From NCBI RefSeq assembly GCF_001583495.1, contig NZ_LQAQ01000093.1, positions 1 to 64,000 on the forward strand: a stretch of 64,000 nt of DNA, read 5' to 3'. Source of the stretch: Flammeovirga sp. SJP92. Its GTDB lineage: Bacteria; Bacteroidota; Bacteroidia; Cytophagales; Flammeovirgaceae. The notes beneath the pieces are model-generated. The model saw nothing but the letters and a program-made list of their open reading frames with translations. It had not been told where the DNA came from and did no database searches. Below are positions 9,308 through 19,264 of this stretch, one piece after another. The position numbers and the translations under genes were made by a program. How positions within the stretch are numbered: position 1 is the stretch's first letter; every line of letters starts with the position of its first letter.

Positions 9308-9715
9308 TTATACTGTACAGCATTCTTCCCCTCTAGATTTTAAATCTCTTTGATTGTAAATATGAAGTGCAATCAATCCAATGGAAGGAAATAGAATTGT
9401 ATTTTCATGAAGGCTTAGCCAATGCATTTTCTCATTTAAAATCACAAAAGACAATGACGACCAACTCAATACAAACAAAAACTTCACAATTTTATTATGA
9501 CTTGACCTGTAGGATTGCACCACAGCGATTAGTGATATGAATAGAAACAAATAATCAAACTGCCTCCACCAAGAAGGTGACGCTTCACAACAACTATCCG
9601 CTGCAATACTGCAACTGTCAGCAATAAACAGAAAAGGTGTAATCACACAATGGATCAAACACAGAAAACTTGTGACAGCTCCAAAAACATCAGATTTATA
9701 AGTTGATAAATTCAT
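9308..9715 (-). CDS. MerC-domain membrane protein, co-regulated with hmu
   Basis: The frame stays open upstream, but the start is best placed at the ATG at 9715, because a promoter lies at 9775-9747. The protein has 135 residues and four hydrophobic segments. The first holds FLCLIHCVITPFLF, the C-x-x-H-C arrangement of MerC-type metal transporters. A cysteine-rich external loop (CSIAADSCCEAS) and a C-terminal EECCTV tail could bind soft or thiophilic metals. MerC proteins carry Hg(II), but in Bacteroidota they are often found without mercury-resistance genes. Its promoter shares an unusual palindrome with the divergent haem operon, so a role in iron or other metal homeostasis is more likely than mercury resistance. 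Confidence 0.8.
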   Translation of the reverse strand: MNLSTYKSDVFGAVTSFLCLIHCVITPFLFIADSCSIAADSCCEASPSWWRQFDYLFLFISLIAVVQSYRSSHNKIVKFLFVLSWSSLSFVILNEKMHWLSLHENTILFPSIGLIALHIYNQRDLKSRGEECCTV

Positions 9716-9746
9716 GTGCACTAATAATGAAATTGTATTTAGGCTA

Positions 9747-9775
9747 CAAAAATAGAAAAAAAACATATGATGCAA
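9747..9775 (-). promoter_or_regulatory. Promoter of the MerC-like gene
   Basis: On the minus strand TTG (9775-9773), an 18-nt spacer and TATTTTTG (9754-9747) form a consensus promoter. The -33 TTG lies inside the operator at 9771-9785, so a bound repressor would block it. The untranslated leader would be about 25 nt. Confidence 0.7.
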
Positions 9776-9785
9776 TATAATCGCA
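9771..9785. promoter_or_regulatory. Operator copy 1, TGCAA-N5-TCGCA
   Basis: TGCAATATAATCGCA is a 5-5-5 dyad, one of three copies in this divergent spacer. It covers the -33 element of the MerC-like gene promoter. The 15-bp dyad size fits a dimeric Fur-superfamily-type repressor, but the regulator is not identified. Confidence 0.65.
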
Positions 9786-9911
9786 TTTGAATATATACGA
9801 ATATTAAAGCTTGTATGAATTTTATTTTCGAATTGATACCTATTGAAGAGTGCGTAACTAATTACAAACAACAATGTTTATTTTTTTTTAGATAAATTAA
9901 CAATCATCAAA

Positions 9912-9926
9912 TGCAACTCTGTCGCA
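9912..9926. promoter_or_regulatory. Operator copy 2, TGCAA-N5-TCGCA
   Basis: TGCAACTCTGTCGCA has the same half-sites and spacing as copies 1 and 3. It lies where the -33 region of the hmuR promoter is expected. Confidence 0.65.
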
Positions 9927-9934
9927 TTTATTTA

Positions 9935-9942
9935 TACTTTTG
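9935..9942 (+). promoter_or_regulatory. -7 element of the hmu operon
   Basis: TACTTTTG matches TAnnTTTG. No clear TTG lies at -33, so the promoter may be weak or need an activator. It overlaps operator copy 3. A transcript start near 9949 makes the in-frame ATG at 9911 unusable and points to TTG at 9980 as the hmuR start. Confidence 0.6.
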
Positions 9943-9955
9943 CGACTATATCGCA
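9941..9955. promoter_or_regulatory. Operator copy 3, TGCGA-N5-TCGCA (perfect dyad)
   Basis: TGCGACTATATCGCA is a perfect 5-5-5 dyad that overlaps the end of the -7 box and the expected transcript start, the classic position for repression. Confidence 0.7.
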
Positions 9956-9979
9956 TTTAAGCACTTATCAAAGTTCATT

Positions 9980-12289
9980 TTGAAAATCTCCATAACACGT
10001 AAATTACTTCCTTTTTTAAGCATTATATTTTTTACAATAAATGCCTATTCTCAAACTAATAAGAATACAATCAGGATAGTTGACGCTAATAATGAAGGCA
10101 TCCCCGGTGTTACTGTTCAAATCGAGGACAGTAACGATTTTATTGGTGTCACTTCCTCTAATGGAAGTATTATCAATAAAGTAAAAAAGACCACTAAAGT
10201 GACGATTCACAGCCTGGGTTTTGAAACAATAGTGAAAACGATTCAACCTCATAAAAGCTATACCTTTCAGCTTCAAGAAAAAGTAGATGAGTTGGATGAG
10301 ATCGTTGTAACTGGTGGTTTTGTTCCTACTAAAGCAAATTCTTCTTTATTCAATGTAAAGAGAATTGGAGTGGAGGAAGTGGAAGCTCGTGGTGCTGTGA
10401 ATATGAGTGACTTACTAGAACAACAACAAAATATAAAAGTGATTCATGATGATGTTTTAGGGAGTAGAATTATTCTCAATGGTTTATCAGGTGTCAATGT
10501 AAAAATGTTGATGGATGGTCTACCTTTAGTGAATGGTAGTGGGGATGATTTTGATTTGAATCAACTGAATTTGAATGATATTGAGAGAATTGAAGTGGTA
10601 GAAGGTCCACTTTCTGTGCAGTATGGCAGTAATGCTTTAGCAGGTACGATCAATATGATTACAAAAAAACCGTCAATGAATGATCCTTGGAAAGGAGGTA
10701 TAAATACATACGTTGAGTCTATTGGGAAATTTAATGTAGATGGCAGTATTAGAAAGGGTTGGAAAAATACTTCAATGTCATTGAGTGGTGGTAGAAATCA
10801 GTTTCTTGGGTATGATCTAGATCAAAGTAAAAGAGGAAAATTCTGGAGACCTAATACACAGTATTATGGAAACCTTAGATTAAAACACCAAATTAATAAA
10901 GTTTCTATTGCAGGTTTTTATCAACAATTTTTTGAGGATTCTAAGTCACTTGGAGAAAGTCAAGGTGGTATAAATTCCAAAATTGGTGAAAATGGGGCGT
11001 ATAGCTATGCTATTGCAAGAGATAGAGAATATAAAACACATAGAATCAATAGTGGAATTAATATTGACGCAGAATTTTCTGATAGGAGTCAATTACAAAT
11101 TACAAACGGGATTTCATTTTATGAACAGCAATCTCAGCTCTATGTAAACGATTTATATCACAACATGAAGTTTTTGAGTGATACACTCTCCGATCATGAT
11201 ACTACATCATTTATGACCTTTACGTCTAGAGGTAGTTATGTGCTATCTGAAATAGGTCGCCACAACTCCGTTTGGGTAGTGGGTTATGAAGCCAATATCA
11301 ATAGAGCTGCAGGAGGAAAAGTAAGCACTGACTCAGGAAATGGATATGATGAATACTCTCTTTTCACAGCATATAAATGGCAAATTTCAAATGCTTGGGC
11401 CTTTCAAACTGCTTTCAGAACAACTTTTAATACTGTTTTTGATAATGGAGCAATTGATATTGCAGGGGCAAGTGTTCCTCTTATTCCTTCATTTAATGTT
11501 CTGTATAAGCCATCTGAAAATTGGCAATATCGCTTGAGTTATGGTAAAGGTTATAGAGTACCTTCTATGAGAGAGTTGTATTATTATTTCAGAGATGCTA
11601 ATCACTATATTGTTGGAAACCCAGATCTAACACCTGAAAATGGTGATAATTTTAATTTACAAACAACTTATGCCCAAAACTATAATGATTGGAGATGGTC
11701 ATTAAACACATCTGTTTTCTATAATCAGATCAAAAACAAAATTGAAATGGTTAACCTGGACAGTGTACCTCCGAATATTTCAGAAAATACTCCTGTCAAA
11801 AGAACTTATGAGAACATCGAGAACTACATTTCTACAGGGTTTTCGGTCAATCTTGCCACAGAATATAAATCACGATTTACGTTTGATCCAGGGTTCAGCT
11901 TTTTAGCTCGATCTGGATCGGAATCTTCTGATCAATTTTTCAATAGCTATGAAATCACACTAAGGAGTAGTTATCTGATCAGGAAATTTGATACTAAAAT
12001 CAACGTCTTCTATAAATATAACAGCCCTTATGCTGAATTTTCTAAAACCAAAGAAGGTGAAGTTGGAACACAAACTCTAGAGGCTTACAGCTTATTGGAT
12101 TTGACACTAACTAAACCATTTATGAAGAGAAAATTATTGACTACAGTAGGTGCAAAAAACTTACTCAACGTCACTACTGTAAATATCTATGGTGATGGTT
12201 CCAAAGGTATTTTGTCCAGAGTTGGTACAGGTGAAAGACCTATCAGCTATGGTACTACATTTTTTATCAAACTAGGTTATCAATTTTAA
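9980..12289 (+). CDS. hmuR: HmuR-type TonB-dependent haem receptor
   Basis: From a TTG at 9980 the protein has 769 residues and begins with a clean signal peptide (KISITRKLLPFLSIIFFTINAYSQ). The open frame reaches ATG 9911, but that lies upstream of the predicted transcript start. A carboxypeptidase-like domain comes first, then the plug (DEIVVTGGFVP, LNGLSGVNVKMLMDGLPLV, IEVVEGPLSVQYGSNALAGTIN), and a barrel ending in GYQF. It should import haem across the outer membrane with TonB energy. Assignment as HmuR rests on the next gene being HmuY and on the HmuSTUV genes that follow, the order known from Porphyromonas and Bacteroides loci, except that here hmuR precedes hmuY. Confidence 0.85.
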   Translation: MKISITRKLLPFLSIIFFTINAYSQTNKNTIRIVDANNEGIPGVTVQIEDSNDFIGVTSSNGSIINKVKKTTKVTIHSLGFETIVKTIQPHKSYTFQLQEKVDELDEIVVTGGFVPTKANSSLFNVKRIGVEEVEARGAVNMSDLLEQQQNIKVIHDDVLGSRIILNGLSGVNVKMLMDGLPLVNGSGDDFDLNQLNLNDIERIEVVEGPLSVQYGSNALAGTINMITKKPSMNDPWKGGINTYVESIGKFNVDGSIRKGWKNTSMSLSGGRNQFLGYDLDQSKRGKFWRPNTQYYGNLRLKHQINKVSIAGFYQQFFEDSKSLGESQGGINSKIGENGAYSYAIARDREYKTHRINSGINIDAEFSDRSQLQITNGISFYEQQSQLYVNDLYHNMKFLSDTLSDHDTTSFMTFTSRGSYVLSEIGRHNSVWVVGYEANINRAAGGKVSTDSGNGYDEYSLFTAYKWQISNAWAFQTAFRTTFNTVFDNGAIDIAGASVPLIPSFNVLYKPSENWQYRLSYGKGYRVPSMRELYYYFRDANHYIVGNPDLTPENGDNFNLQTTYAQNYNDWRWSLNTSVFYNQIKNKIEMVNLDSVPPNISENTPVKRTYENIENYISTGFSVNLATEYKSRFTFDPGFSFLARSGSESSDQFFNSYEITLRSSYLIRKFDTKINVFYKYNSPYAEFSKTKEGEVGTQTLEAYSLLDLTLTKPFMKRKLLTTVGAKNLLNVTTVNIYGDGSKGILSRVGTGERPISYGTTFFIKLGYQF

Positions 12290-12298
12290 TTTTCAATA

Positions 12299-13387
12299 AT
12301 GAAGTTATTCAAAACAACAATCTTCAGCAGTATTTTACTTTGTTCGTTATTCGCTTGTGAGTCATCAGACGAGACTACAACTCCAACTCCTCCAGACGAC
12401 GAAAATGTAGAAAGTAAGCTAATTACAGCAGACATCACTAGTAATTTTTCTCACCAAGTTTTTGTTGACTTTAACACTGGTACAACTACTAGATCTGAAA
12501 CAAATACTTGGGAGTTGGCATTCAATCAAGAAGGAGTAGTTCAATCCAATACAGGAAAAAAAGTGGCTTTATTAATGCCTACAGAAACAGATTTTGAAGC
12601 TATCAATGAAGAAAGTGTTTCAGGGCTTCAATATTTCTATGACGATGAATCCGCTGACTTAACATTAACAGCATGGAACAGAGAGAACTTTGAATTAAAC
12701 AAGCCTTATATCTTGGATTTAGGTATCAACGAATTGGCAAAAGCTTTAGGATTCAAAAAATTCATTATCACTGAAAACTCTGCTTCTCAAGCTATCATCC
12801 GTTTTGCTGATTTAGACGGTCAAAACGAGCAAACTACAACGATTGAAAAAGGTGAAGGATTTGTATACTTTTCTACCATCAATAATAAAGTAGCTGAAGT
12901 AGAGCCTGCCAATTGGGATATCGTATTAAAGCCTGTAACTGTAAGAACTGGTGCTCCATGTTTTACTATGGGTGATGCTGCAATGCCTGGTATCAACTGT
13001 GACATCATGCGTTTGAATACTTCTGTAGTTATCAACCAAAATGGTAATGTAAAAGGGGTTAAAAGCACTAAAGCTGAATTTGCTGATTTTGAACCTACAG
13101 ATGAAGTAGATAGTCCAATCAACAAGTTAACTATTGAAGACAGTAATTTTGAAGAAATCACAGCGGATAACGTTGGTAACAACGAGTTTACGACAAAAGG
13201 TGATGTGATTGGTAAAGAGTGGTTCCATATTTTACAACCGCATAGAGATGGTGTATACAAAGTATATAGTCATATCTCTTTCATTGTAAATGATGAAGAA
13301 GGAAACAACTACAAACTTCGATTCCTTGCATACACAAAAGACGGTCAAAATGGCTACCCTACTTTTGAATATCAATTAGTCAAATAA
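12299..13387 (+). CDS. hmuY: HmuY-like haem-binding surface lipoprotein
   Basis: This 362-residue lipoprotein has a signal peptide with lipobox LFAC (Cys about residue 19), a threonine/proline-rich linker, then HmuY-type beta domains. The segment HQVFVDFNTG followed by TNTWELAF is the family hallmark. HmuY captures haem at the cell surface and passes it to HmuR. It starts 10 bp after hmuR. At 362 residues it is much longer than the roughly 215-residue Porphyromonas HmuY. The extra C-terminal half (about 190-362) may be a second binding module. It has only two mature-domain cysteines, in APCFTMGDAAMPGINCD, which could form a disulphide. Axial haem ligands cannot be assigned by eye. Confidence 0.82.
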   Translation: MKLFKTTIFSSILLCSLFACESSDETTTPTPPDDENVESKLITADITSNFSHQVFVDFNTGTTTRSETNTWELAFNQEGVVQSNTGKKVALLMPTETDFEAINEESVSGLQYFYDDESADLTLTAWNRENFELNKPYILDLGINELAKALGFKKFIITENSASQAIIRFADLDGQNEQTTTIEKGEGFVYFSTINNKVAEVEPANWDIVLKPVTVRTGAPCFTMGDAAMPGINCDIMRLNTSVVINQNGNVKGVKSTKAEFADFEPTDEVDSPINKLTIEDSNFEEITADNVGNNEFTTKGDVIGKEWFHILQPHRDGVYKVYSHISFIVNDEEGNNYKLRFLAYTKDGQNGYPTFEYQLVK

Positions 13388-13437
13388 ATAGTGTAAAAGT
13401 ACTTGAATAATACAAGTACATACTAAAAAGTAAAGCT

Positions 13438-13464
13438 ATCCTTGAGTGTATGTCACTCAAGGAT
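13438..13464 (+). promoter_or_regulatory. Perfect intercistronic hairpin between hmuY and hmuS
   Basis: ATCCTTGAGTG and CACTCAAGGAT form a perfect 11-bp stem with a TATGT loop. No T run follows, so it is not a standard terminator. It may stabilise the hmuRY message 3' end, serve as a processing site, or reduce hmuS expression. The loop contains an in-frame ATG (13450), which makes the unstructured ATG at 13492 the better hmuS start. Confidence 0.7.
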
Positions 13465-13491
13465 ACTTTCATTACAAACAGCTTCATTAGA

Positions 13492-16400
13492 ATGAAATTC
13501 ATCAAAAAGAACAAAAAGCAAATATTTAAATCAAGTGCTATACTCCTAGTCACTTTGATGGTGTATTTGTATTACGCGACTCAAGTCAGCGTAACGCAGA
13601 TTGCATTTATTTCCTTTTCAGAATTCCAGCTTTCTAAAATCAATAAAGTAAACAACAGCGAGTGGATCAATATCACTTCACTTTCTAAGAAAAACATAAG
13701 CGATGCCACAAGTTATGATGTGATCTACCTATTTGGTCGAGGGTTGTCATTATCTGCAGATGAGCAACGTGAATTGATGAAAGCGAGTCATATGGGCACA
13801 AAAGTATATGTATATGCTTCCAATAATGACGCTTACAATATGATTAGCAATGTTGACTCTGTGTCGGCATTGGAAATTGAGGCTTACTTGGATAATGGCG
13901 GTGAGGACAACTATCATCAGCTATTAAATTACACAAGGGTCAATGTAGATAAAAAAGCTTGGTTCCTGCCAGAAGTAAAACCTGTAGAAGAGATTCCTGA
14001 GGATGCTTATTTAAGCATGGGAACTACAAAGGCATTTACTGAATTAGCTAAAGTCATTGAAAACCAAAAGAATAATAATACTTATAAAGAAGGTCAGCCG
14101 ACCGTCGCATTATTGACGAGTGTACCGGGACCTTTTAATGCTAACCCTGAACATATTTTTGATTTACAGAAAGCTCTTTTTGATAGAGGGTTGAATGTCA
14201 TCACAATTACTTCTCACACCCAACGTATCCGAATGATGAAAGAGGTTTCACCTGATTTGGTGGTTTACCTTCCTCATGGTCGTTTGGCTGGGCACTCAAG
14301 AGAAGATGTAGGTCAGTGGTTGAAAGAATATAATATTCCGGTACTGTCTCCATTGAGTATTTTCCAGAAAAAAGAAGATTGGGAAAACTCTCTTAAAGGA
14401 ATGTCAGGCGGAATGTTGAGCATGAGTGTGGTTCTTCCTGAATTGGACGGTGCTGTGGCTCCTTATGCTTTTGCGGTAGAAATGAAAGATGAATCTGGTT
14501 TCTTGAAGTTTAAAGGAATTCCAGAAAGAATCGACTGCTTGGCAGATATGTGTAGGAACTATATTGACATCAAGCAAAAGCCAAAATCAGAACAGAAAAT
14601 CGCGATTTACTATTTCAAAGGTCCTGGTATGAACGCTATGGTAGCATCCAACCTTGAGGTAGAACAATCATTGTACAACACTTTGAAAATGCTGAAAGCA
14701 CAAGGTTTCAAAGTGGATAATATGCCAAAGAATCAAAAGGACTTCCATGAAATGATCCAGAAAAATGGATTAGTTTTAGGACCGTATGCGAAAGGTAAGT
14801 TTGATGATTTTGTGAAGACAGCTGATCCTGTTTTAGTGGACACAGCAAGTTACCAACAATGGACAGCGAAAGATCTTACGAAAAGTGCTTACGGTGAGGT
14901 GGTCAAGAAATATGGTGAGGCTCCAGGTGAATATCTTTCTGTAAAAGAAAAAGACAATGCCTATATCGCAGTTTCAAGATTGGATTTTGGCAATGTGGTT
15001 TTATTACCTCAACCTATGCCTGGTCTTGGTGATGACAGTTTCAAATTAGTGCATGGTGCCAAAGCAGCTCCTCCCCACCCTTATGTGGCTTCTTATTTAT
15101 GGACAAAAAATGATTTTAAAGCCGACGCCATCATCCACTTCGGCACGCACGGTAGTTTAGAATTTACACCGGGTAAGCAAGTTGGTTTATCTTCTAATGA
15201 TTGGAGTGATGCTTTAATCGGAAGTACACCACACTTCTATGTTTATACGATCAGTAATATCGGTGAAGGAATCATTGCGAAGCGAAGAAGTTATGCCACC
15301 ACAGTCACTCACTTAACGGCTCCTTTTACTGAAGGTGAAATTTATAGTGACCTCAAAAAATTAGAGGAAAAGCTAGACAAATTTTACAGTGTAGAAAATC
15401 CTAATCTTAAAGAAAAATATAAAAAGTCAGCTGTTGACATTGCTCGTCAGATGAAAATTGATGAAGATCTTCAATTGGATTTCTCTGGTGAGGTAAGTGA
15501 TTCTACATTATTCGCCATCTCTCAGTATGTAGAGGAAATCGGTAATTCAAAAGTTGCCAATGGTTTGTACAGCTTGGGCAGACCTTACACTGAAAAGCAA
15601 TTAAATGAGACGGCTTTATTGATGTCATTAGACCCGATCGCTTACAGCTTAGCACAGTTGGATGTTGCCGATGGAATTATTGATCAAAAGAAATCAGAAG
15701 ATGCTCGTTACTTTGATAAGCATTACCGTCAGCCGACAAAAGCGATTTTACAAAAACTTTTATCCAATCAATTAAGCATTGCGCAAGCCAAAAATCAATT
15801 GATCAAACAAGAACGATTGGATAAGATTAAGGCTTGGGAAGAAAAGCAACAAAAAGCGAAAATGCATGCTATGGCTCACGCCAAGAAAAAGGTGGATGGT
15901 AAAAGTGGTGCTTCTCAGGTCAAAAAGAAATTGGATATTCCGAAAGACGAATTGTTGAAACAAAGAGCGGAAGCACAAAAGAAAAGTGCGATTGTCCGTA
16001 AAGGGATGTTGTATGCACAAAATGTTGAGAATGTATTCGTTGGTTTAGAGAATGTTTTAAAGTCGAAGGAAAACCTTAAGATCAGTACTCAACAAGAGCA
16101 ACTTGCTTTGGTCAACGGCATCAAAGGTGGTCATATTTTACCGACTTCTGGTGGAGATCCAATTACCAATGCTTATGCGGTGCCAACGGGTAGAAACCTT
16201 TACTCTATTGATGCGGAAGCGACACCTTCCAAGGAATCATGGGAGTTAGGAAAATCTTTAGGAAAGAAATTATTGGAGCAACATTTTGCGAAAAACGGTG
16301 AGTACCCGAAGAAAGTGAGTTTCACACTTTGGGCTAGTAGTTTTATCGAAACGGAAGGGGCGACTTTTGCTGAAATATTATACTTACTAGGCGTTGAACC

Positions 16401-17703
16401 TGTTCGTGGTCCGTTTGGAAAAGTAATGGATGTACAGTTGATTCCTTCAGAAGAATTGGACCGTCCGAGAATTGATGTAGTAGTGCAAACTGCAGGTCAA
16501 TTTAGAGATTTGGCAGCATCAAGAATGTTCTTGATTAATAAAGCGGTGAAGTTGGCGGCTAATGCTGATGAGATTGTTACCAACTTTGTAAAAGAAGGCG
16601 TAGCAGAGGCTGAGCGTTTCTTAAAGGAAAAAGGAATGTCTCCTCAAAAAGCACAACGTTTTGCAGCGGATAGAGTGTTTGGCGGTGTGAATGGCAACTA
16701 CGGAACAAACATCATGGGATTGGTAGAAAAAGGAGATCGATGGGAATCAGAAGATCAAATTGCTTCTACTTATATCAACAACATGGGTGCGGTTTACGGT
16801 GAAGAAGATTGGGGAGAATTTGCAGAAGGCATTTTTGAAGCAGCACTTCAAAATACTGATGTAGTTGTTCAACCAAGACAAAGTAATACTTGGGGTGGTT
16901 TGAGTTTGGATCACGTGTATGAGTTTATGGGCGGATTAAGTATGGCAGTTAGACATACAACTGGTAAAGATCCTGACGCTTATTTCAATGATTACAGAAA
17001 TGCCAATAATGTCAAAATTCAAGGTGTTAAAGAAGCCTTGATGGTAGAGGCTCGTTCTACTTTATTGAACCCTAAATACCTGAAAGGGATGATGAAGGAA
17101 GGGGCGACAAGTGCTGAAAATGTAGCGGAAACGATCCGTAATACTTACGGTTGGAATGTGATGAAACCTAACGAAATCGAGAATCATCTATGGGATGATT
17201 TAATGGAAGTGTTGGTGGAAGACAAATACAACTTAAAGACACAAGATTTCTTCGAAAAAGAAAACCCGTATGCACTGGAAGAAGTGACGGCTGTAATGTT
17301 GGAAACAATCCGTAAAGGCTATTGGAAAGCGAGTCAAGCTCAGATTGAGAAGTTGGTGGAAGTACATCAGGAAATGATTGACAAGCACAAAGCAGGTTGT
17401 AGTGAGTTTGTTTGTGACAACATGAAGTTGAAAGATTTTATTGTAAAAAATTCTACCAATCAACAACTGAAAGAGAGTTACCAACAGCAAATCGCAAAAG
17501 TCAGAGAGTTGCCAACAGATCAACAATCTGAAGTAAAAGAAGAAAAGAAAAGTATTCAATTAGAAAAAGAGGTGATCCAAGAAGAAACCGTGGGTCAACC
17601 AAAAGATAATCAAGAAAGTTTGAGTAATTCTGAAATCGGCATTGCCTTGGGCGTGATCGCTTTATTACTCCTTTTAATAGCTGTCTATTATAAAGTAAAA
17701 TAA
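13492..17703 (+). CDS. hmuS: HmuS, membrane-anchored CobN-like haem chelatase
   Basis: From ATG 13492 the protein has 1403 residues; ATG 13450 is possible but sits in a hairpin loop. It belongs to the CobN/ChlH/BchH large chelatase-subunit family; IIHFGTHGSLEFTPGKQ is a clear CobN signature. Unlike cytosolic CobN it starts with a lysine-rich tail and one membrane segment, and ends with a second segment (GIALGVIALLLLLIAVYY) followed by lysines. By the positive-inside rule the main body is periplasmic. A lysine-rich insertion lies at about residues 775-845. Bacteroidota HmuS has been linked to removal of iron from haem. No ATPase partner is encoded here; HmuT, HmuU and HmuV follow directly. Confidence 0.88.
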   Translation: MKFIKKNKKQIFKSSAILLVTLMVYLYYATQVSVTQIAFISFSEFQLSKINKVNNSEWINITSLSKKNISDATSYDVIYLFGRGLSLSADEQRELMKASHMGTKVYVYASNNDAYNMISNVDSVSALEIEAYLDNGGEDNYHQLLNYTRVNVDKKAWFLPEVKPVEEIPEDAYLSMGTTKAFTELAKVIENQKNNNTYKEGQPTVALLTSVPGPFNANPEHIFDLQKALFDRGLNVITITSHTQRIRMMKEVSPDLVVYLPHGRLAGHSREDVGQWLKEYNIPVLSPLSIFQKKEDWENSLKGMSGGMLSMSVVLPELDGAVAPYAFAVEMKDESGFLKFKGIPERIDCLADMCRNYIDIKQKPKSEQKIAIYYFKGPGMNAMVASNLEVEQSLYNTLKMLKAQGFKVDNMPKNQKDFHEMIQKNGLVLGPYAKGKFDDFVKTADPVLVDTASYQQWTAKDLTKSAYGEVVKKYGEAPGEYLSVKEKDNAYIAVSRLDFGNVVLLPQPMPGLGDDSFKLVHGAKAAPPHPYVASYLWTKNDFKADAIIHFGTHGSLEFTPGKQVGLSSNDWSDALIGSTPHFYVYTISNIGEGIIAKRRSYATTVTHLTAPFTEGEIYSDLKKLEEKLDKFYSVENPNLKEKYKKSAVDIARQMKIDEDLQLDFSGEVSDSTLFAISQYVEEIGNSKVANGLYSLGRPYTEKQLNETALLMSLDPIAYSLAQLDVADGIIDQKKSEDARYFDKHYRQPTKAILQKLLSNQLSIAQAKNQLIKQERLDKIKAWEEKQQKAKMHAMAHAKKKVDGKSGASQVKKKLDIPKDELLKQRAEAQKKSAIVRKGMLYAQNVENVFVGLENVLKSKENLKISTQQEQLALVNGIKGGHILPTSGGDPITNAYAVPTGRNLYSIDAEATPSKESWELGKSLGKKLLEQHFAKNGEYPKKVSFTLWASSFIETEGATFAEILYLLGVEPVRGPFGKVMDVQLIPSEELDRPRIDVVVQTAGQFRDLAASRMFLINKAVKLAANADEIVTNFVKEGVAEAERFLKEKGMSPQKAQRFAADRVFGGVNGNYGTNIMGLVEKGDRWESEDQIASTYINNMGAVYGEEDWGEFAEGIFEAALQNTDVVVQPRQSNTWGGLSLDHVYEFMGGLSMAVRHTTGKDPDAYFNDYRNANNVKIQGVKEALMVEARSTLLNPKYLKGMMKEGATSAENVAETIRNTYGWNVMKPNEIENHLWDDLMEVLVEDKYNLKTQDFFEKENPYALEEVTAVMLETIRKGYWKASQAQIEKLVEVHQEMIDKHKAGCSEFVCDNMKLKDFIVKNSTNQQLKESYQQQIAKVRELPTDQQSEVKEEKKSIQLEKEVIQEETVGQPKDNQESLSNSEIGIALGVIALLLLLIAVYYKVK

Positions 17704-17705
17704 CT

Positions 17706-18368
17706 ATGGAGGGTGTTTTCTTTTTAATACTTTCCATGAGTTTTGTTCTAATGATTGCAGACCGATGGCAGTCTCGACCGCTGCCGTCGGTCCTTAGATA
17801 CTTTTTGCTCAGCAGTGCAGCATTACTTTCTTTCAATACGCTGATCAGTCAGAATAAAAGTTATTGGTTTGAAGAGTTAATGACGGAACGATGGGTGATG
17901 TTGTTCTTTGGTAGTTTGATTATTGAAATGAGTTTGGGTGTTTTAATGTCCCGCTATTCCAATACCAAATTGATCAAAGGGCTCTATCAAGTACTTTCAT
18001 TTTTGCCGAGACCCACTTCCCTTTTCTCCATTTTGATTATTGAAATACTGATTTTTGATTCAATTAATGGATGGAGTTTTAAGGCTGTAAGCATCGCTTA
18101 TGCGATCTCGATCTTAATTATTGGATTAGGTTTTTATTTTTCATTCAGAAATAATCAATCACTGATCCGAATCAAATCAGTAGTGGTTACAGTATTCAGC
18201 ATATTACAGCTATTGCTGATTTCCACCTTATTCAATCCTCAAAAACTACATGGAGGAAACTCCGATTTTGATGTACAATCATCGCTTTTTGTACTGATGA
18301 TTTTCGGAGTATTTGCATTGATCGGTTATTTATTATCAATTCGAAAAAAACATGGATTACGTAAATAA
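17706..18368 (+). CDS. hmuT: HmuT, polytopic membrane protein of the haem operon
   Basis: This 220-residue protein has about six hydrophobic segments, no recognisable catalytic motif and a basic C-terminus (RKKHGLRK). It starts 2 bp after hmuS and its end overlaps hmuU by 17 bp, so it is translationally coupled to both. Position and topology match the HmuT slot of hmuYRSTUV operons. It is probably a membrane scaffold or permease part of the HmuSTUV complex; no ABC transporter signature is present. The name is by synteny only. Confidence 0.7.
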   Translation: MEGVFFLILSMSFVLMIADRWQSRPLPSVLRYFLLSSAALLSFNTLISQNKSYWFEELMTERWVMLFFGSLIIEMSLGVLMSRYSNTKLIKGLYQVLSFLPRPTSLFSILIIEILIFDSINGWSFKAVSIAYAISILIIGLGFYFSFRNNQSLIRIKSVVVTVFSILQLLLISTLFNPQKLHGGNSDFDVQSSLFVLMIFGVFALIGYLLSIRKKHGLRK

Positions 18369-18957
18369 AATATTGTTTTGGATTTCATCAGGGTTGATGT
18401 TTCCAACCGTCGTAGCACTGATTGTAATGTTCGTGCTTTCTTTGGTAAAACTGGGAGAAAACTACCATGCTTTTATCCAAAGAGTAAAACAGAAAAAGAC
18501 GATTAAGCCCTATATCGAAGAATTAAAGAAGGAGTTAATTCAGCCTAACTTTGCTTCTGATTCTATTCTTGCTTCAAGCATCAACGAACTTTTCACTTTT
18601 GAAGATTCAATGGTTAGAAGGGAAAGGGTAGTTGCGGAGTTTGAAGCCAAAGGAAGAAAGTCTTTGAGTATGTTGAAAAACCTAGCGAAGATGGGACCTG
18701 TAGTGGGTTTGATGGGTACTTTAATTCCAATGGGTCCTGCCTTGGTAGGACTTTCATCAGGTGATATTGCTTCTATGGCAAATAATATGCAGATGGCATT
18801 TGCCACTACAGTTGTCGGTTTGATCATCGGCGGAATCGGATTTGTATTGCAAAACGTACAGCAGAAATGGTTTGCTGAAGACTATGCTACTTTAGTTTTT
18901 ATTGTTGATTTAATGCAAGAAGAAAATGAGAAGAAGACAGAATCCGTTCTTAAATAA
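18352..18957 (+). CDS. hmuU: HmuU, MotA/TolQ/ExbB-type channel protein
   Basis: This 201-residue protein has three membrane segments. The last two flank GLMGTLIPMGPALVGLSSGDIASMANNM and AFATTVVGLIIGGIGF, the hallmark of the MotA/TolQ/ExbB proton-channel family. It overlaps hmuT at its start and hmuV at its end, so all three should be made together. In this family, pentamers surround a pair of ExbD-like helices and turn proton flow into mechanical work. Its partner here is most likely HmuV. Confidence 0.88.
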   Translation: MDYVNKILFWISSGLMFPTVVALIVMFVLSLVKLGENYHAFIQRVKQKKTIKPYIEELKKELIQPNFASDSILASSINELFTFEDSMVRRERVVAEFEAKGRKSLSMLKNLAKMGPVVGLMGTLIPMGPALVGLSSGDIASMANNMQMAFATTVVGLIIGGIGFVLQNVQQKWFAEDYATLVFIVDLMQEENEKKTESVLK

Positions 18958-19264
18958 TGAGGATGATATAGATCCGGTAGCATCTGTAGCCAACCTTTTT
19001 GATGTGGCAATGGTTTTTGCCGTCGCTTTGATGATCGCCTTTGTAACGAGATTCAATATGCAAGAATTTTTCTCTGATGAAGATTTTACGATCGTAAAGA
19101 ATCCAGGGAAAGAGCAGATGGAAATCATCACCAAAAAAGGAAAAGAAATCACAAAGTATAAGCCTTCTGAAAATCAAGACAAAAAGGAGTCTGGTAATAA
19201 AGGAAAGAAGATTGGTACGGCGTATCAGTTGGAATCTGGTGAGGTGATTTATATTGAGGATTAA
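18926..19264 (+). CDS. hmuV: HmuV, DUF2149 protein with ExbD-like membrane helix
   Basis: This 112-residue protein matches DUF2149. It has a short cytoplasmic N-terminus (RRRQNPFLNNEDDIDP), one membrane helix (ANLFDVAMVFAVALMIAFV) and a small C-terminal soluble domain. The helix carries an aspartate near its start in the context FDVAMVF, which resembles the proton-carrying IDVMLVL of ExbD. The gene overlaps hmuU by 32 bp. It is likely the stator-partner subunit of HmuU; this ExbD comparison is my inference from sequence pattern and topology. Confidence 0.8.
   Translation: MRRRQNPFLNNEDDIDPVASVANLFDVAMVFAVALMIAFVTRFNMQEFFSDEDFTIVKNPGKEQMEIITKKGKEITKYKPSENQDKKESGNKGKKIGTAYQLESGEVIYIED

What the first reader, a model, noticed from the sequence alone, without database searches (positions are those of the whole stretch)
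13492..19264. Possible proton-driven periplasmic haem-dechelation machine (HmuSTUV)
HmuS is CobN-like but has N- and C-terminal membrane anchors that place the chelatase body in the periplasm. The operon has no AAA+ partner, yet encodes an ExbB/TolQ-like HmuU and a DUF2149 HmuV with FDVAMVF in its single helix, like the proton-carrying Asp helix of ExbD. Overlapping genes imply fixed stoichiometry. I propose that proton flow through HmuU-HmuV powers metal removal or porphyrin handling by HmuS.
Basis: partly seen in the sequence, partly recalled or inferred. Interest (0 to 1): 0.8.

Follow-up and report, generated by a model that had tools for sequence, protein, structure and literature searches.

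The report
Ion-driven partner pair for haem dechelatase
A bacterial haem-uptake operon pairs an enzyme that pulls iron out of haem outside the cytoplasm with two small membrane proteins that look like an ion-driven motor; in the relatives examined, archaea included, that pair mostly keeps company with this type of enzyme rather than with outer-membrane transport, which suggests that ion flow powers the enzyme.

Summary
The operon is real and of the known hmu kind: TonB receptor, HmuY, HmuS (CobN family, hydrophobic anchor at both ends), HmuT, HmuU (MotA/TolQ/ExbB) and HmuV (DUF2149). HmuS dechelation and a periplasmic place for it are published. The role of HmuU-HmuV is not settled: papers assign them to powering the outer-membrane receptor or to inner-membrane haem transport. 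Of 57 well-flanked DUF2149 loci, 56 have HmuU adjacent and 55 a CobN, but only 36 a TonB receptor. DUF2149 occurs in 131 of 199 genomes of one archaeal class, where ExbD reaches its cut-off in 0 of 199 and a receptor plug in 1. All 67 full-length CobNs near DUF2149 have a hydrophobic end; 20 short CobNs elsewhere have none, and 6 of their 18 stretches carry a ChlI/D-type AAA+ gene. In a tree the two groups part at one branch. So an ion-driven pair appears to replace the ATPase. Ion flow and contact with HmuS are inferred. HmuV resembles ExbD in layout and Asp, not by profile. Gene overlap does not show stoichiometry, purified HmuS makes 1-2 turnovers alone, and some archaeal T-U-V sets lack a nearby CobN.

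The parts
9911..12289 (+). HmuR-like TonB-dependent receptor (first gene of the run)
   Evidence: PF00593, PF07715; matches to the TIGR01785/01786 haem receptor subfamilies are far below their cut-offs
12299..13387 (+). HmuY-like protein
   Evidence: PF14064 HmuY, 66.7 bits, cut-off 27
13492..17703 (+). HmuS: CobN-type chelatase/dechelatase with an N- and a C-terminal hydrophobic segment (open frame from 13450)
   Evidence: PF02514; best solved relative 9d26, HmuS haem dechelatase; residues equivalent to H538, Q1198, S1199, W1202, D1208, H1209, E1212 kept
17706..18368 (+). HmuT: inner-membrane protein with six hydrophobic segments, distant relative of DUF2162
   Evidence: no Pfam match; hhalign of 11 HmuT against 45 DUF2162: 81%, E 1.2e-5 over 165 columns; control comparisons under 2%
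18352..18957 (+). HmuU: MotA/TolQ/ExbB-type channel subunit; Pro116, Thr123 and Thr153 conserved
   Evidence: PF01618; conservation over 89 HmuU next to HmuV
18926..19264 (+). HmuV: DUF2149, one helix with conserved Asp26, then a small domain
   Evidence: PF09919; Asp in 89 and Glu in 1 of 90 rows; NLFD in 30 of 30 archaeal copies picked by HMM; low-confidence model with helix 17-49 and short strands

Best explanation
HmuU and HmuV form an ion-driven motor of the ExbBD/MotAB type whose cargo is HmuS, not the outer-membrane receptor. HmuR brings haem into the periplasm, powered by one of the cell's separate ExbB-ExbD pairs. HmuS, held at the inner membrane by both ends, demetallates it. Ion flow through a HmuU ring moves HmuV (through Asp26), and HmuV's outer part works on HmuS, either forcing the metal-releasing shape or ejecting protoporphyrin so that the enzyme can turn over. 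HmuT probably passes the freed iron, or another product, inward. In the soluble relatives CobN and ChlH this remodelling is done by a cytoplasmic AAA+ ATPase; outside the cytoplasm there is no ATP, so an ion-driven partner has taken its place. Shown here: the gene linkage, the split between short and end-anchored CobN, and the conserved motor residues. Inferred: ion flow, physical contact, and which step is powered.
For: Linkage: of 57 DUF2149 loci with at least 5 kb on each side (from 87), U within 300 nt in 56, CobN within 10 kb in 55, a T-like protein in 41 by a fixed rule (44 on a second look), TonB receptor in 36, ExbD and TonB in 6 each. No outer membrane needed: DUF2149 in 131 of 199 genomes of the class of G304 (archaea), ExbD over cut-off in 0 of 199 (one weak match), receptor plug in 1 of 199; among the 14 control genomes Methanosarcina acetivorans holds MotA_ExbB, DUF2149 and CobN but neither ExbD nor plug. 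Of 30 best-scoring archaeal copies, U adjacent in 29, CobN adjacent in 25; 4 more end at a contig edge, 1 has none. Partner swap: 67 of 67 full-length CobNs near DUF2149 have a hydrophobic segment at one end or both (51 at both); of 26 not near it, 20 short ones have none and 6 long ones have both. ChlI/D-type AAA+ in 6 of 18 stretches with short CobN and in none of the 93 loci L001-L093. Tree: 95 CobNs that are DUF2149-linked (86) or have a hydrophobic C-terminus (9) part from 20 short ones at one branch, FastTree local support 100. Co-occurrence: HmuS hits of 550 bits or more in 3 of 296 Bacteroidota genomes (the window's own and two others), the same 3 that hold DUF2149; next best 242 bits. 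Motor residues: HmuV Asp26; HmuU Thr123 in 85 of 85 and Thr153 in 80 of 85 ungapped rows. The genome has two other ExbB genes, each with ExbD beside it. Purified HmuS makes only 1-2 turnovers; ATP is not needed. In T. lovleyi the authors found no CobS or CobT for this CobN.
Against: HmuS purified without TUV does convert haem to protoporphyrin with NADH, so the chemistry does not strictly need the pair. Sonicated B. theta membranes reach about 80% conversion, although NADH could energise vesicles. HmuV has no significant profile match to ExbD. In Bacteroidota 13 of 14 well-flanked loci also have a TonB receptor, so a Ton-like role cannot be excluded there; no TonB was confirmed in the window's genome (the frame after ExbD in L001 has no Pfam match). 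PMC10100974 reports 981 species with R, T, U, V and 337 with T, U, V in which HmuS was not detected at its 30% identity threshold; I could not tell whether a divergent CobN is there. Some archaeal T-U-V sets show no CobN in the stretch seen (L195, L199, L202, L203, L204), and CobN is missing from two well-flanked loci, L051 and L076, although both genomes hold an end-anchored CobN elsewhere. 12 of 18 stretches with a short CobN have no ChlI/D gene either. No contact or co-fold could be tested.
Confidence: 0.58

Rival explanations
1. HmuU and HmuV are the ExbB and ExbD of a dedicated Ton system that powers haem import through HmuR (the published assignment for B. theta).
For: Stated in PMC10100974, which also claims strong sequence and predicted structural similarity of HmuU/HmuV to ExbB/ExbD, and in the Figure 1 legend of PMC12583661; HmuU is in the ExbB family; a receptor lies in the operon and in 13 of 14 Bacteroidota loci.
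Against: The same pair with an end-anchored CobN occurs in archaea without ExbD or receptors. No TonB gene among the six. The T. lovleyi locus has the T-U-V-CobN set and a separate exbB-exbD-tonB set side by side. The window's genome has two other ExbB genes with ExbD. Loci such as L010, L036, L059 and L091 show no receptor within 10 kb. HmuV does not match ExbD by profile.
Confidence: 0.17
2. HmuT, HmuU and HmuV form one inner-membrane transporter, driven by ion flow, that moves haem, porphyrin or freed metal into the cytoplasm; HmuS only makes its substrate.
For: Presumed for P. gingivalis. T, U and V are contiguous and overlap; T-like in 41 to 44 of 57 loci; in archaea DUF2162 next to U in 28 of 30; some archaeal T-U-V sets show no CobN. 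The T slot in Runella, inside a hydrogenase-maturation cluster, has sub-threshold matches to DsbD_2 and to the nickel transporter family NicO.
Against: After a second look T is missing from 12 of 57 loci and unclear in 1 (L080), including 7 of 8 Pseudomonadota, while U, V and CobN remain; T is very variable (window HmuT 11-20% identical to 10 other HmuT-like proteins).
Confidence: 0.19
3. HmuU-HmuV act as a gate, scaffold or stability partner for HmuS and conduct no ions in use.
For: No conductance or coupling data turned up in the passages read; linkage alone cannot tell a motor from a scaffold.
Against: The helix Asp and two channel Thr positions are kept across bacteria and archaea, as expected if ions pass.
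Confidence: 0.06

Closest known systems
HmuS haem dechelatase of Bacteroides thetaiotaomicron (PDB 9d26; PMC12583661)
   Same: Same family, end anchors and active-site residues; same six kinds of gene in the operon
   Different: Met79, the haem ligand of site 1, is aligned with Arg in the window protein; the stretch of the methionine-rich insertion has few Met in the window (sequence)
CobNST and ChlHDI, ATP-driven class I chelatases
   Same: HmuS is homologous to CobN/ChlH
   Different: Those use AAA+ partners (passages); here the body is outside and HmuUV sit where the partner would be
ExbB-ExbD, TolQ-TolR and MotA-MotB ion-driven motors
   Same: HmuU is in PF01618 with the conserved Pro and Thr; HmuV has one helix with an Asp and a domain beyond it
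   Different: HmuV is DUF2149, not PF02472; the pair travels with a chelatase and also occurs in archaea without ExbD or receptors
Pseudomonas aeruginosa PA1922-PA1925 (Zur regulon)
   Same: Receptor, CobN-like, gene annotated exbD, and DUF2149 in a row (passages)
   Different: Induced by zinc shortage; substrate unknown; not examined as sequence here
pSZ77 cobN cluster of Trichlorobacter (Geobacter) lovleyi (PMC3403914; L008)
   Same: T-U-V-CobN set
   Different: Sits among cobalamin genes next to a full exbB-exbD-tonB set; the authors predict corrinoid or siderophore transport and leave the CobN role open

Membership tests
HmuS haem dechelatase | CobN/Mg-chelatase domain over the whole body | tested here: met
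   PF02514, 1008.9 bits, residues 145-1298
HmuS haem dechelatase | N- and C-terminal membrane segments | tested here: met
   sequence; C-terminal segment also by hydropathy of the truncated copies L003/L004
HmuS haem dechelatase | Active-site His538, His1209, Asp1208, Glu1212, Gln1198, Ser1199, Trp1202 | tested here: met
   aligned to 9d26; His1209 in 11 of 11 hmu-type rows, Asp in 69 of 85 other linked or anchored CobNs
HmuS haem dechelatase | Site 1 haem ligands Met79 and His254 | tested here: not met
   His254 equivalent kept, Met79 equivalent is Arg; in 11 hmu-type rows R 6, M 4, L 1, so this feature varies more than published (one MAFFT alignment)
HmuS haem dechelatase | Methionine-rich insertion | tested here: inconclusive
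   an insertion-like stretch is present but with few Met (sequence; alignment)
HmuS haem dechelatase | Removes Fe(II) from haem | not testable with these tools
   needs enzyme assay
MotA/TolQ/ExbB channel family | PF01618 above its cut-off | tested here: met
   45.6 against 22.9 bits
MotA/TolQ/ExbB channel family | Conserved Pro and two Thr of the channel helices | tested here: met
   Pro116 and Thr123 in 85 of 85, Thr153 in 80 of 85 ungapped rows; they align with a canonical ExbB; that these matter for proton passage is recalled
MotA/TolQ/ExbB channel family | Pentamer around a dimer | not testable with these tools
   no complex prediction on hand
ExbD/TolR | PF02472 match | tested here: not met
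   only DUF2149 at E 0.01
ExbD/TolR | Profile similarity to ExbD | tested here: not met
   hhalign 0.6-1.2% probability, although Asp is laid on Asp; the ExbD profiles had only 4 and 9 rows
ExbD/TolR | Single N-terminal helix with Asp | tested here: met
ExbD/TolR | Periplasmic domain of the ExbD fold | tested here: inconclusive
   model too weak; fold search empty
ATP-driven class I chelatase complex | AAA+ partner gene next to the large subunit | tested here: not met
   none in the operon; ChlI/D-like in none of L001-L093; only 6 of 18 short-CobN stretches have one

The most novel reading that the evidence does not exclude
HmuS is one branch of a widespread family of end-anchored, extracytoplasmic CobN chelatases in bacteria and archaea that have exchanged the AAA+ ATPase for an ion-driven ExbB/DUF2149 motor, a way of powering metal-tetrapyrrole chemistry not described in the papers searched. 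Gene neighbours suggest that other branches act on corrinoids or on zinc or nickel complexes.
Probability: 0.5. Interest if true: 0.85.

Novelty: new variant of a known kind. Interest (0 to 1): 0.7.

Why it matters
If true, ion-driven motors of the ExbB class would have a new kind of job, running an enzyme rather than a flagellum, gliding or outer-membrane transport, and would have it in archaea too. It would offer a reason why purified HmuS stalls after one or two turnovers, change the published role of HmuUV in gut bacteria, and give a function to DUF2149 and to many 'CobN' genes of archaea that the EMBO J paper leaves without one.

Tried and rejected
Structure models of HmuV (mean pLDDT 62) and HmuT (64) are too weak, and PDB fold searches gave nothing at E 0.001; not used. 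hhalign of HmuV with ExbD: Asp on Asp but not significant. Gene fusions tying V to CobN: none among seven archaeal loci; long DUF2149 frames there are over-extended starts. A first tree of 117 rows gave three changes because two truncated CobNs (L190_1, L192_1) were labelled soluble; they were dropped, and 115 rows gave one. treekit warns of long branches and uneven letter make-up in these trees. Overlap as a sign of stoichiometry: rejected on known 5:2 motors. Literature: 5 papers with DUF2149, none with DUF2162; two papers on this motor class hold neither 'chelatase' nor 'CobN' (term searches); searches listed no paper that, by its title, start of abstract or the passages I opened, proposes HmuUV as the power source of HmuS. 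Subscription papers and preprints are not in that library. PMC10100974 had already listed HmuV homologues in Methanomicrobia.

What I saw of papers: PMC12583661 abstract, sections 5, 8, 11, first part of 21, and passages; PMC10100974 section 12 and passages; PMC13227078, PMC4542158, PMC8531726, PMC9431628, PMC10434189, PMC545781, PMC7689651, PMC3403914, PMC3621897, PMC9389320, PMC12505986 passages only; others listing only.

The Asp was checked on 30 HMM-picked copies, themselves best-scoring. The short CobNs (19 archaeal, 1 from the window's genome) come from genomes that hold DUF2149, and I chose stretches by CobN length; one partial short CobN (G308:C111) was not fetched. Anchors are hydropathy calls (19-residue mean over 1.6). 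The ChlI/D profile was built from the window genome's gene and its hits, so distant AAA+ could be missed; a Walker-type regular expression marked one frame in 6 of 87 loci, none a ChlI/D hit.
Full report
What is there. On the + strand lie a TonB-dependent receptor, HmuY, HmuS, HmuT, HmuU and HmuV in that order. HmuS is a CobN/Mg-chelatase protein whose closest solved relative is the HmuS haem dechelatase 9d26. Its active-site residues, in B. theta numbering H538, Q1198, S1199, W1202, D1208, H1209 and E1212, are kept. One published feature is not: Met79, a ligand of the second haem, is aligned with Arg. HmuU is in the MotA/TolQ/ExbB family; HmuV is DUF2149. The genome has two further ExbB genes with ExbD beside them; the frame after ExbD in L001 looks like TonB to the eye but has no Pfam match. 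It also has two FeoB_C matches, a ferrochelatase and no match to the Heme_oxygenase family. A second, soluble CobN lies at C93:345947-349207 with a ChlI/D-type AAA+ gene about 5 kb off.

What is already known. PMC12583661 shows that HmuS removes iron from haem, that ATP is not needed, that activity is in the membrane fraction, and that recombinant HmuS makes only 1-2 turnovers; its Figure 1 legend gives HmuU and HmuV the job of powering the receptor. PMC10100974 says the same, claims similarity of HmuV to ExbD, calls HmuY, HmuT and HmuV diagnostic of haem transport, and lists HmuV clusters in Methanomicrobia; it also counts species with T, U and V in which HmuS was not detected at 30% identity. 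PMC13227078 argues for a periplasmic HmuS and presumes that HmuTUV carry haem across the inner membrane.

Test 1: whom does HmuUV follow? A scan of genome contigs with a DUF2149 alignment gave 80 loci, to which 7 plasmid loci were added. Of the 87, 57 have at least 5 kb on both sides of DUF2149: U within 300 nt in 56, CobN within 10 kb in 55, a T-like membrane protein in 41, a TonB receptor in 36, ExbD and TonB in 6 each. A second look finds T in three more (L036, L042, L064), unclear in L080, and absent in 12. By group, CobN and receptor: Bacteroidota 14 and 13 of 14; Desulfobacterota and other deltas 17 and 16 of 17; Pseudomonadota 8 and 7 of 8; other bacteria 5 and 0 of 5; archaea 11 and 0 of 13. 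The two archaeal exceptions, L051 and L076, lie in genomes with an end-anchored CobN on another contig.

Test 2: cells with no outer membrane. In the class of G304 (a Methanococcoides genome) 131 of 199 genomes have DUF2149, none has ExbD over its cut-off (one weak match) and one has receptor plugs, two on one contig, perhaps contamination. Of 30 best-scoring archaeal copies, U is adjacent in 29 and the motif NLFD present in 30. CobN follows within 1.5 kb in 14; wider flanks of the other 16 show CobN in 11, a contig end just after DUF2149 in 4, and none in 1 (L195). Seven further loci, picked because the DUF2149 frame was long or the genome had several copies, gave CobN in 3 (L198, L200, L205) and none in the stretch seen in 4 (L199, L202, L203, L204). 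So in such genomes the link is not strict.

Test 3: two kinds of CobN. Of 93 full-length CobNs, 67 lie within 10 kb of DUF2149 and all have a hydrophobic segment at one end or both (51 at both); of the 26 others, 20 short ones (1191-1342 aa; 19 archaeal, 1 from the window's genome) have none and 6 long archaeal ones have both. ChlI/D-type AAA+ genes turned up in 6 of the 18 stretches with short CobNs and in none of L001-L093; no HmuU or HmuV was seen in those 18 stretches. In a FastTree tree 86 DUF2149-linked CobNs plus 9 others with a hydrophobic C-terminus are separated from the 20 short ones by one branch with local support 100, after two mislabelled fragments were dropped. In Bacteroidota, HmuS hits of 550 bits or more occur in the window's genome, G253 and G290 only, the same 3 of 296 that hold DUF2149; the next best hit has 242 bits.

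Test 4: does it look like a motor? HmuV Asp26 is Asp in 89 and Glu in 1 of 90; one search pattern favoured Asp, but the 30 archaeal HMM picks agree. In HmuU, Pro116 and Thr123 are kept in all 85 ungapped rows and Thr153 in 80. HmuV is not recognisably ExbD by profile, and its model is poor. It is laid out like ExbD; it is not filed as one.

Other clues. A Desulfobacterota neighbour (L043) joins a BtuF-like binding domain with CbiZ, which points to corrinoids, as does the T. lovleyi plasmid, whose authors found no CobS or CobT in that genome. In Runella the set lies among hydrogenase-maturation genes, with a T-slot protein weakly like DsbD_2 and NicO, both below cut-off; in P. aeruginosa it is Zur-regulated. 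This argues against HmuV being specific to haem. HmuT is a distant DUF2162 relative (81%); DUF2162 has a PCPxC motif in 44 of 45 rows, which HmuT lacks.

Verdict. The operon is of a known kind. That HmuUV serve HmuS rather than the receptor is favoured by linkage, by archaea, by the two kinds of CobN and by motor residues, and is put at 0.58 in the full mechanistic form. Which step is powered, and whether the ion is a proton, is open.

Noticed in passing
window 13437-13465: Strong 12-pair hairpin between HmuY and HmuS, terminator-like on both strands by the scan, perhaps lowering read-through into HmuSTUV; it covers the upstream ATG of the HmuS frame.
   Followed up: partly
window 13738-13740 (HmuS residue 97 of the 13450 frame): Residue aligned with Met79, the published site 1 haem ligand, is Arg; in 11 hmu-type rows R 6, M 4, L 1 (one MAFFT alignment).
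   Followed up: partly
L043:10288-12294 and 666-721 aa frames in other Desulfobacterota loci: BtuF-like (Peripla_BP_2) plus CbiZ fusion with a signal-like start beside the T-U-V-CobN set; Pfam was run on the L043 copy only. Hints at corrinoid processing outside the cytoplasm.
   Followed up: partly
L011 (Runella slithyformis plasmid): U-V-CobN set inside a hyp hydrogenase-maturation cluster; membrane protein in the T position has matches below cut-off to DsbD_2 and NicO.
   Followed up: partly
L202, L203, L204: Archaeal T-U-V sets with no CobN in the stretch seen but with large predicted surface proteins upstream; one genome (G479) has 8 DUF2149 matches.
   Followed up: no
DUF2162 proteins, e.g. 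L008:7708-8409: PCPxC motif in 44 of 45, possible metal or thiol site; absent from the window's HmuT.
   Followed up: no
window 9308-9874, - strand: 188-aa frame upstream of the receptor with Cys and His residues in a membrane segment; looks MerC-like (recalled, not searched).
   Followed up: no
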